64,000 nt of DNA from Clostridium ljungdahlii DSM 13528 (GTDB taxonomy: Bacteria; Bacillota; Clostridia; Clostridiales; Clostridiaceae): assembly GCF_000143685.1 (NCBI RefSeq), contig NC_014328.1, positions 1,364,001-1,428,000 of the forward strand, given 5' to 3'. A program made the translations under genes and the position numbers. Under the pieces are notes generated by a model that worked only from the letters and a program-made list of their open reading frames with translations, ran no database searches and was not told where the DNA came from. The first letter of the stretch is position 1. Every line of letters starts with the position of its first letter. Shown in pieces: positions 7,454-37,061 of the stretch.

Positions 7454-7475
7454 TTGTTAATTTGACCACATAATC

Positions 7476-7674
7476 AAGTGATTCTTAGGTTCAGGTGGAG
7501 TTTGCTTATAAGGAATACCTTTTCTCCATCTGAACCTTAGAAGAACTTATCCAGGCGCGTAGCAGTGCTTATCCCACACTTTGAAGAAAAGCAGATATCC
7601 CAAATCTTTGATTTGGTGATAGTCGATTTCACTGTGTGCGATGGGGGTGTTAGCAATGGTAGCGATCGGATAAA
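7476..7674 (+). repeat. Structured repeat copy A (downstream of recG)
   Basis: One of three related elements (others at 16799-16938 and 36866-37061). Domain I is a long hairpin from TTCTTAGG (7482-7489) to CCTTAGAA (7534-7542) with an internal T-T mismatch. Domain II is closed by TTATCC (7547-7552) and GGATAA (7668-7673) and contains a second helix, TAGCAGTGCT with AGCAATGGTA (8 of 10 pairs). Between the arms of domain II, copy A carries an extra segment of about 55 nt with its own hairpin. Relative to copy B it is nearly identical outside the insertions. No match to a named RNA family is known to me. Confidence 0.85.
7599..7650 (+). repeat. Mini-element nested in repeat copy A
   Basis: CCAAATC (7600-7606) and GATTTGG (7610-7616) form a tight hairpin with a TTT loop, followed by GTG and a GTCGATTT...GCGATGGGG tail. 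A similar unit, with the same hairpin and an AGTC...TTCGACCC tail, lies at 42290-42332. Copy B lacks this segment at the equivalent place, so it appears inserted into the terminal loop of domain II. Confidence 0.6.
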
Positions 7675-16568: not shown

Positions 16569-16802
16569 ATGATTTTTGAAAAAATACAAAAAATAATATC
16601 TGAACAACTTGGAATTGGCTCTGATGAAATAAAAATGGAATCATCTTTTATTGACGATTTAGGTGCAGATTCCCTTGATATCGTTGAGTTAATAATGGCT
16701 CTTGAAACAGAGTTTGATATTGAAATACCAGACGAAGAAGCTGAAAAGGTAAAAACAGTGGGAGATGTAGTTGAGTACATAAAAGCTCATACTGAAGAAT
16801 AA
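16569..16802 (+). CDS. acpP: Acyl carrier protein
   Basis: 77-aa acidic ACP carrying growing acyl chains on phosphopantetheine. The attachment site is Ser35 within [22 protein letters not shown] lies 8 nt upstream of the ATG. It has its own promoter and is followed by repeat copy C and a terminator, so it may be expressed as a short transcript, with rnc 274 bp further on. Confidence 0.96.
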
Positions 16803-16938
16803 ACAGAGTTCTTGGCATCAGGTGGAGTTTTTAACTCCACCTGATGCTTAGAAATCGTTATCCAGGGACATAGCTGCTCTTTACTCACACTTGGATAAGT
16901 GGGAGTATTAGAGCAGGTAGTTACCGGATAAACAGAGT
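16799..16938 (+). repeat. Structured repeat copy C (downstream of acpP)
   Basis: Divergent third member of the family. Domain I: 21-nt arms (16809-16829 and 16833-16853) with a 3-nt loop, one T-T mismatch and one G-T pair. Domain II: TTATCC (16858-16863) with GGATAA (16926-16931), enclosing TAGCTGCTCT with AGAGCAGGTA (9 of 10 pairs) and an inner ACTC-CACTT / AAGTG-GAGT stem. The paired bases differ from copies A and B but pairing is kept. ATAAACAGAGT occurs at both edges (16799-16809 and 16928-16938), resembling a target duplication. Confidence 0.82.
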
Positions 16939-36094: not shown

Positions 36095-36871
36095 ATGTCA
36101 ACACTATTAGACAAAACAAGAAAATTGAACAAGATATTACAGAAGTCAGGAACAGAACCAGTAGCTTTTGAAGATATATGTAAATTGTTAAGTGAAGTTT
36201 TGGAATGTAACGTTTATATTATAAGTAGAAGAGGGAAAATATTAGGATATAATTTTCCAGATGGTTTTGAATGTTATATGCTTAAGGAGAAAGTAATAAA
36301 TGAAATGAAATTCCCTGAGCAGTATAATAATAAGCTTTTAAATGTACATGAGACTTTGGCCAATTTAAGTAATAATGGAATTTGTGTTTTTGAAGATGGA
36401 ACTCCCTGTGATATAGATAATAAGCTTACAACTATAGTTCCTATAGTAGGTAATAGAGAAAGATTAGGAACCTTATTATTAGCAAGTTTTGGAGAAAAAT
36501 TTACTGATGAAGATCTAGTATTAGGGGAATATAGTGCAACTATAATTGGACTTGAGATATTAAGATCTAAAAATGAAGAAATAGAAGAGGAAGCTAGAAA
36601 GAAAGCAGTAGTTCAATTAGCTATTGGGACTTTGTCGTACTCAGAATTGGAAGCAGTGGAACATATATTCAGTGAGTTGGATGGAAATGAAGGATTACTT
36701 GTAGCATCAAAAATAGCTGATAAGGTTGGAATAACCAGGTCTGTTATTGTAAATGCACTTAGAAAATTTGAAAGTGCAGGAGTTATAGAATCTAGGTCAC
36801 TTGGAATGAAGGGGACTCATATTAAGATATTAAATGAAAAATTAATGGATGAGTTGAAGAAGATAAAGTGA
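36095..36871 (+). CDS. codY: GTP-sensing global transcriptional repressor CodY
   Basis: Senses branched-chain amino acids and GTP and represses nitrogen and starvation genes. 258 aa: N-terminal GAF domain (about 1-155), linker, and a winged helix with [20 protein letters not shown] and [13 protein letters not shown] at the C-terminus. AAGGAGGG lies 9 nt upstream. In Bacillus codV-clpQ-clpY precede codY; here topA does. The TGA stop lies within the left edge of repeat copy B. Confidence 0.96.
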
Positions 36872-37061
36872 TTCTTAGGTTCAGGTGGAGTTTGCTTATA
36901 AGGAATACTTTTTCTCTACTGAACCTTATTAACAATATTCTTAGTGTCTTTAGCACTTAGAATACGTTATCCTTTAGGGGAAGAACTTATCCAGGCACGT
37001 AACAGTGCTTATCGCCCACTTTGAAGAAAATGGTGGTTAGCAATGGTAGCGATCGGATAAA
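36866..37061 (+). repeat. Structured repeat copy B (downstream of codY)
   Basis: Near-identical to copy A over domain I (first 42 bases match) and domain II. It starts in the last codons of codY, so AAG-TGA belongs to both. Domain II is closed by TTATCC (36987-36992) and GGATAA (37055-37060), with TAACAGTGCT / AGCAATGGTA inside. It lacks the mini-element of copy A but has about 50 extra bases (36929-36979) containing another TTCTTAG...CTTAGAA hairpin and a second CGTTATCC. Confidence 0.85.

What the first reader, a model, noticed from the sequence alone, without database searches (positions are those of the whole stretch)
36866..37061. Three-copy structured repeat family behind recG, acpP and codY
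Copies A (7476-7674), C (16799-16938) and B (36866-37061) share one architecture: a long 5' hairpin, then a domain closed by TTATCC/GGATAA with an inner helix (TAGCAGTGCT/AGCAATGGTA in A). In C the inner helix is TAGCTGCTCT/AGAGCAGGTA: both sides changed and pairing preserved or improved, including a conserved G-G or A-G mismatch at the third position. Domain I also covaries (AGGTTCAGG in A and B, GGCATCAGG in C). Selection for RNA structure, or recent spread of a folded element, explains this better than chance. All copies follow a stop codon on the coding strand. I cannot name the family.
Basis: partly seen in the sequence, partly recalled or inferred. Interest (0 to 1): 0.82.

Follow-up and report, generated by a model that had tools for sequence, protein, structure and literature searches.

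The report
Modular mobile DNA repeat of Clostridia
The three look-alike folded stretches are copies of a short, gene-less jumping DNA repeat that is scattered in high numbers through many Clostridia, lands beside the letters ATAAA, and gains or loses small hairpin modules; it looks more like a passenger moved by a borrowed enzyme than like a working RNA gene.

Summary
The window has three, the genome at least 98 places, partial ones included. A covariance model finds it in 81 of 206 genomes of the family and 30 of 391 of the class. Covariation is strong (31 of 39 pairs), but G-U wobbles do not exceed A-C mismatches (68 vs 71), so it does not show RNA-level selection. Copies lie in either orientation to genes. 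All three window sites lack the element in C. ljungdahlii ERI-2 and hold it in C. ragsdalei; of 20 sampled sites resolved in both, 9 lack it in both. Empty sites show one ATAAA (21 of 25 read); it stays on one side while the other end is element-encoded (ATAAA or ATCAA). On the opposite strand this is insertion 3' of TTTAT, right end TTTAT or TTGAT, no target duplication: the IS200/IS605 pattern. Two 51-nt modules come and go at fixed sites. Best reading: a non-autonomous, modular, IS200/IS605-like repeat, closest in kind to B. cereus bcr1. No helper transposase was found; this genome has no detectable Y1 transposase.

The parts
7473..7669 (+). Copy A: inserted element (A-type hairpin I, A-type domain II with apical insert), between recG and the next gene
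   Evidence: ERI-2 lacks it (CATA|ATAAATTAAC) and C. ragsdalei holds it with an extra B-module; R1 110.9 bits
7482..7542 (+). Copy A hairpin I
   Evidence: fold; aligned
7547..7673 (+). Copy A domain II, TTATCC...GG|ATAA; the last four bases are target
7589..7640 (+). Copy A apical hairpin insert (about 51 nt; boundaries approximate)
   Evidence: presence/absence at orthologous copies
7670..7674 (+). Target ATAAA (TTTAT on the other strand)
   Evidence: single ATAAA in ERI-2
16799..16927 (+). Copy C: inserted element (C-type), directly at the acpP stop codon
   Evidence: ERI-2 lacks it, ragsdalei holds it; R1 148.9 bits
16809..16853 (+). Copy C hairpin I
   Evidence: fold
16858..16931 (+). Copy C domain II, TTATCC...GG|ATAA; the last four bases are target
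   Evidence: fold
16928..16932 (+). Target ATAAA, followed by CAGAGT, which equals the element's own left end (11-nt direct repeat ATAAACAGAGT on both sides)
36863..37056 (+). Copy B: inserted element (A-type hairpin I, B-module, A-type domain II), at the codY stop
   Evidence: empty in ERI-2 and in G003, G006, G008, G009, G010; filled in ragsdalei and G011; R1 64 bits
36869..36871 (+). codY stop codon TGA supplied by the element (ATA AAG TGA; ERI-2 reads ATA AAA TAA, same Ile-Lys-stop end)
36872..36928 (+). Copy B hairpin I
   Evidence: fold
36929..36979 (+). Copy B: 51-nt B-module, a small hairpin unit resembling a shortened hairpin I plus GTTATCC
   Evidence: presence/absence at orthologous copies
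36987..37060 (+). Copy B domain II, TTATCC...GG|ATAA; the last four bases are target
   Evidence: fold
37057..37061 (+). Target ATAAA
   Evidence: single ATAAA in ERI-2

Best explanation
A non-autonomous, modular mobile DNA repeat (about 130-250 bp, no gene). Shown: it is repeated at many unrelated places, sites are filled or empty between near relatives, empty sites hold one ATAAA, and 51-nt hairpin modules differ between orthologous copies. Inferred: it moves as single-stranded DNA by an IS200/IS605-type (Y1, HUH) transposase supplied in trans. Read on the bottom strand, it inserts 3' of TTTAT, which stays in the flank; its own right end is TTTAT (C-type) or TTGAT (A-type). Domain II is then the left-end structure and hairpin I the right-end hairpin. 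Inferred: the closing helix TTATCC/GG-ATAA is guide-target pairing, because the ATAA of that helix belongs to the target, as the guide of IS608 pairs with its target. Modules probably spread by transposition of module-bearing variants and by gene conversion among copies. The fold is then a DNA-level signal; when a copy lies in a transcript, any RNA effect is secondary.
For: At least 98 places in this genome; 81 of 206 genomes of the family and 30 of 391 of the class positive. Single ATAAA at sites lacking the element: 21 of 25 sites read (3 of 5; 3 of 3 window sites in ERI-2; 15 of 17); background ATAAA is 0.0075 per position in the flanks. Left end is type-specific: ATAAA in 37 of 40 C-type, ATCAA in 27 of 33 A-type; right ATAAA in 57 of 75. 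At six A-type sites the filled copy has ATCAA while the empty relative has ATAAA (1461140, 2792391, 3171781, 3141629, 787906, recG), so the left end is element-encoded and no full 5-bp duplication occurs. Copies in both orientations to genes. Site 4068365: the C-type copy is absent in both relatives, and ERI-2 holds an inverted A-type copy about 20 nt away starting 3' of a TTTAT. GU = AC. Passages read: group A IStrons (IS200/IS605) insert downstream of TTGAT, ATTAT or TTTAT without duplication (PMC4227781); ISDra2 3' of TTGAT (PMC2806898); IS608 chooses its target by guide base pairing (PMC5934647); ends-only PATEs are often moved in trans (PMC7290912).
Against: No helper found. G000 has no Y1_Tnp match (0 of 10 candidates), and at least 9 genomes with the repeat have none. 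30 Y1 loci have no element within about 1.5 kb, and none of five Y1 element groups, 20 loci, has similar ends by eye. No replication-strand bias: 54 leading, 44 lagging of 98, p 0.36, origin assumed at position 1 (by type), although IS200/IS605 elements are known to be biased (recalled). Domain II is far larger than an IS608 hairpin. The guide-target helix is nearly invariant, so its pairing to the target is not tested by covariation; one row changes TTG/CAA together, others change one side only. A 2-bp AT duplication, hence another recombinase, is not excluded. Some 'empty' sites may be losses: ERI-2 at acpP could come from deletion between 11-nt direct repeats, and sites 3384986 and 4531600 carry older element ends.
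Confidence: 0.66

Rival explanations
1. A MITE-like or site-specific-recombination element with a 2-bp AT core or duplication, moved in trans by a DDE, DEDD or serine recombinase that is not yet identified.
For: AT lies on both sides of both types (AT-AAACAGAG...CGG-AT, AT-CAAGTG...CGG-AT). [quoted passage not shown] No Y1 in G000.
Against: No terminal inverted repeats seen by eye. TA, the IS630/mariner target (recalled), is absent on the left of the usual A-type (ATCAA). The pentamer ATAAA is the specific feature of the target.
Confidence: 0.2
2. A functional structured RNA (cis-acting 3' UTR element or small RNA) kept by selection, spread by duplication.
For: Strong conserved folding and covariation (31 of 39 pairs; 261 double-change cells against 64.8 sd 6.4 shuffled; slid versions at most 48). 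The three window copies follow stop codons.
Against: GU = AC (68 vs 71), against 34 GU and 0 AC in 384 pairs of 18 tRNAs (ARAGORN draws standard pairs only, so that control is biased). No orientation preference. Sites empty in near relatives. Modules change at fixed sites.
Confidence: 0.08
3. An RNA-intermediate, SINE-like bacterial retroelement, with the structured RNA copied back into DNA at ATAAA.
For: Whole-element structure, high copy number, precise ends, no gene inside.
Against: No tail or 5' truncation bias noticed by eye; GU = AC. No reverse transcriptase was searched for, so this is weakly tested.
Confidence: 0.04

Closest known systems
bcr1 of the Bacillus cereus group (group A of bcr1-bcr18)
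   Same: Short structured chromosomal repeat, tens of copies, TTTAT motif, MITE-like, part of UTRs when transcribed (passages in PMC6542083 and PMC3446304). TTTAT is the reverse complement of ATAAA.
   Different: Sequence homology not tested: no bcr1 sequence could be had (PMC524882 not held). bcr1 is described there as restricted to the B. cereus group; this family is spread over class Clostridia and is modular.
PATEs, ends-only derivatives of IS200/IS605 elements
   Same: Palindromic ends, no gene, insertion 3' of a fixed tetra- or pentamer without duplication, presumed trans mobilisation (passages in PMC7290912).
   Different: No full IS with the same ends was found; far more copies and a larger, modular structure.
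Group A IStrons (CdISt1 type)
   Same: Clostridial IS200/IS605-type elements inserted downstream of TTGAT, ATTAT or TTTAT (passage in PMC4227781).
   Different: No group I intron and no transposase gene; group A IStrons end TCAG according to the paper, here ...TTTAT or ...TTGAT.
Modular or stem-loop repeats: BOX and RUP (pneumococcus), EFAR/Efa-1 (enterococci), Clop-1 and Clot-1 (C. perfringens, C. tetani)
   Same: Short intergenic families with common secondary structure (tables seen as passages in PMC2267715; MITE list in PMC3733652). Modularity of BOX and EFAR is recalled.
   Different: Homology to Clop-1 or Clot-1 was not tested (no sequences in the text seen).

Membership tests
Non-autonomous IS200/IS605 element (PATE) | Insertion next to a fixed tetra- or pentanucleotide kept in one flank | tested here: met
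   One ATAAA (TTTAT) at 21 of 25 sites lacking the element
Non-autonomous IS200/IS605 element (PATE) | No target-site duplication; other end element-encoded | tested here: inconclusive
   A-type left end ATCAA against empty ATAAA at six sites speaks against a 5-bp duplication; a 2-bp AT duplication remains possible
Non-autonomous IS200/IS605 element (PATE) | Subterminal hairpins at both ends, no terminal inverted repeats | tested here: met
   Folds and pairing; absence of inverted repeats judged by eye
Non-autonomous IS200/IS605 element (PATE) | An autonomous relative or a Y1 transposase acting on the same ends | tested here: not met
   None in 30 Y1 loci or five Y1 groups; no Y1 in G000. Part of the Y1 diversity was not examined. 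The element is therefore filed as IS200/IS605-like, not as a member
Non-autonomous IS200/IS605 element (PATE) | Replication-strand bias of insertions | tested here: not met
   54 leading, 44 lagging of 98, p 0.36
bcr1 | TTTAT at the ends, structured, mobile, many copies | tested here: met
   against passages
bcr1 | Sequence similarity to bcr1 | not tested
   No bcr1 sequence obtained
Rfam RNA family | Match above gathering score | tested here: not met
   0 matches in the window. At E up to 5 in 4 loci, 7 sub-threshold matches, the best 27 bits against a cut-off of 47 (rimP); three of them overlap copy C
Functional RNA | G-U substitutions favoured over A-C in helices | tested here: not met
   30 vs 33 and 68 vs 71; 18 vs 27 in the 25 best rows
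IscB/HEARO or TnpB omega-RNA element | Linked iscB or tnpB gene | tested here: not met
   RRXRR in 18 of 206 genomes, none in G000. Elements near 3 of 30 TnpB loci; the one pair compared in detail, L226/L235, shows the element beyond the duplicated tnpB region

The most novel reading that the evidence does not exclude
The family is moved by a so far unrecognised route: its own folded DNA or RNA carries the target guide (TTAT pairing with ATAA of the target) and works with a host or unrelated enzyme that is not a Y1 transposase, which would explain why it stays high-copy and polymorphic in C. ljungdahlii, whose genome has no detectable Y1 transposase.
Probability: 0.14. Interest if true: 0.82.

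Novelty: new variant of a known kind. Interest (0 to 1): 0.52.

Why it matters
A repeat family in a large share of the Clostridiaceae examined, including the industrial acetogens C. ljungdahlii, C. ragsdalei and C. carboxidivorans, has no Rfam name and was not described in the papers I could search. It gives a concrete, testable mechanism (single-strand insertion 3' of TTTAT with guide pairing) for a kind of repeat, bcr1-like, whose mobility is described in the passage I saw only as possibly site-specific-recombination-like. It also shows that strong covariation in an interspersed repeat need not mean a functional RNA: the GU-versus-AC count is a simple check. Practically, insertions can supply stop codons (codY) and lie just behind recG, acpP and codY, and they differ between close strains.

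Tried and rejected
Rfam: no accepted match. Literature: nine answered searches found no description of this family; most subscription papers are not in that library. Y1 transposase: present in 161 of 206 genomes, absent in at least 9 repeat-bearing genomes on the lists shown; 25 further negative genomes were not listed. TnpB and IscB links rejected. Y1 elements in G193, G009, G010 and G167 have other ends. Plasmids: no match for one element. Viral contigs: one exact-pattern match, with no model match. Exact-pattern hits in Pseudomonas, Shewanella, Cytophagaceae, Cyclobacteriaceae and Peptococcaceae records have no model match and are probably chance; Desulfosporosinus is real (92.6 bits). Replication-strand bias: none. 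A first count of 10 C. ljungdahlii-only sites was mended to 9 after one search showed a truncated element at site 3384986 in ERI-2.

Full report
What was checked. The three stretches read as described. Folding is exceptional for C (-67.4 kcal/mol, z -11.6) and A (z -5.4), marginal for B (z -2.2; 8 of 200 shuffles as good). Rfam gave no match in the window; a permissive scan of four loci gave seven sub-threshold matches. The window is G000:C1:1364001-1428000 of a 4,630,065-base single-contig genome, which matches C. ljungdahlii DSM 13528 in size (recalled).

Copy number and spread. A covariance model R1 (133 positions, 39 pairs) was built from 42 own-genome copies. With filters off it finds only the three window copies as full forward matches above 13.1 bits. 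At E up to 1e-5 it is positive in 81 of 206 genomes of the taxonomic family (21 of 46 genera, own genome included) and 30 of 391 genomes drawn from the class, 14 of them in this family and 16 in eight other families.

Anatomy. Left end ATAAACAGAG (C-type) or ATCAAGTGATTC (A-type); hairpin I; optional 51-nt B-module; domain II closed by TTATCC/GGATAA with a bulged inner helix and an apical stem; optional apical insert of about 51 nt. C-type, A-type and a third type differ in the inner helix with pairing kept. On 59 class-wide matches (55 loci given), 31 of 39 pairs show changes on both sides, 93.8% of cells pair, and double-change cells number 261 against 64.8 (sd 6.4) shuffled and at most 48 in slid controls. 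The alignment was fitted to the model, which leans towards the structure.

RNA or DNA. In helices, G-T and A-C cells are about equal: 30 and 33 in A1, 68 and 71 in A2; 18 and 27 in the 25 best-scoring rows, 50 and 44 in the rest. Eighteen tRNAs in the loci held gave 34 and 0 of 384 pairs, a biased control because ARAGORN draws standard pairs. Copies show no clear orientation preference to genes in 75 cases and none to replication in 98. This removes the argument from covariation to RNA function; it does not disprove a function of single copies.

Mobility. In H. lingqiaonensis (G192) and Clostridium sp. KNHs214 (G193) 20 fetched stretches hold near-identical copies with sharp ends, some in duplicated surroundings. 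Joined flanks found five sites without the element: three with one ATAAA, one with TTAAA, one unclear. At acpP, ERI-2 shows ATAAACAGAGT, which equals the element's left end, so loss by deletion between 11-nt repeats is possible there. Of 46 full-length copies with clear ends, 26 of the 43 outside the window were sampled: C. ragsdalei 12 empty, 11 filled, 3 unclear; ERI-2 15 empty (one with an inverted copy nearby), 4 filled, 1 truncated remnant, 6 unclear; of 20 resolved in both, 9 lack it in both. One of these nine, 4531600, carries an older element end.

Target and ends. Across, 21 of 25 sites lacking the element show one ATAAA in at least one relative. The rest: TTAAA once, three not readable. 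In filled copies the right pentamer is ATAAA in 57 of 75; the left is ATAAA in 37 of 40 C-type and ATCAA in 27 of 33 A-type. Six A-type sites have ATCAA where the empty relative has ATAAA. Three A-type copies with left ATAAA in this genome have ATCAA in the relative (1243643, 1711051, codY). So the right pentamer is best read as the target and the left as element-encoded. On the opposite strand this is insertion 3' of TTTAT with an element right end TTTAT or TTGAT. A passage in PMC4227781 gives TTGAT, ATTAT or TTTAT for IS200/IS605-type group A IStrons.

Mechanism, marked. Shown: repeated insertion at ATAAA, type-specific ends, module exchange. Inferred: Y1-type single-strand transposition in trans; TTATCC/GG-ATAA as guide-target pairing, since ATAA is target and TTAT is in the element; 37 of 59 rows keep exactly TTATCC/GGATAA, five change the element-encoded pair together to TTATCT/AGATAA. 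Against: no helper, no strand bias, no Y1 in G000.

Modules. Of 14 sites filled in both C. ljungdahlii and C. ragsdalei (11 sampled plus 3 window), B-module or apical insert differs at 7: 103915, 109379, 3141629, 3171781, 3224007, recG, codY. At 103915 ERI-2 agrees with C. ljungdahlii, and at 3224007 ERI-2 agrees with C. ragsdalei, which suggests gains in both lineages. Two further sites differ in other ways (2107052, 3914377), and acpP by a shorter apical stem in C. ragsdalei.

Comparison and novelty. Works like bcr1 and like PATEs; membership is not claimed, because no helper with the same ends was found and bcr1 similarity could not be tested. Papers were seen as passages only.

Noticed in passing
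window 36863-36871: The element supplies codY's stop (ATA AAG TGA), keeping the Ile-Lys end that ERI-2 has from ATA AAA TAA.
   Followed up: partly
L493 (G005:C7:45440-46030): ERI-2 holds an inverted A-type copy about 20 nt from the place where C. ljungdahlii holds a C-type copy, an independent insertion in the same gap.
   Followed up: partly
L148 401-535, L317 1058-1472: Tandem copies sharing one ATAAA at the junction (L148), and a domain II alone between two copies (L317).
   Followed up: no
G000 copies 1243643, 1711051 and codY: A-type left end ATAAA in C. ljungdahlii where the relative has ATCAA, at all three orthologous pairs compared that have it; cause unknown.
   Followed up: no
L490 (G004:C79:78080-78700): C. 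ragsdalei copy with a different insert of about 67 nt in the apical loop.
   Followed up: no
L149, L159 (G193): An element inserted in sequence that looks like the end of a group I intron or IStron; a sister copy without the element is present (identification by eye).
   Followed up: no
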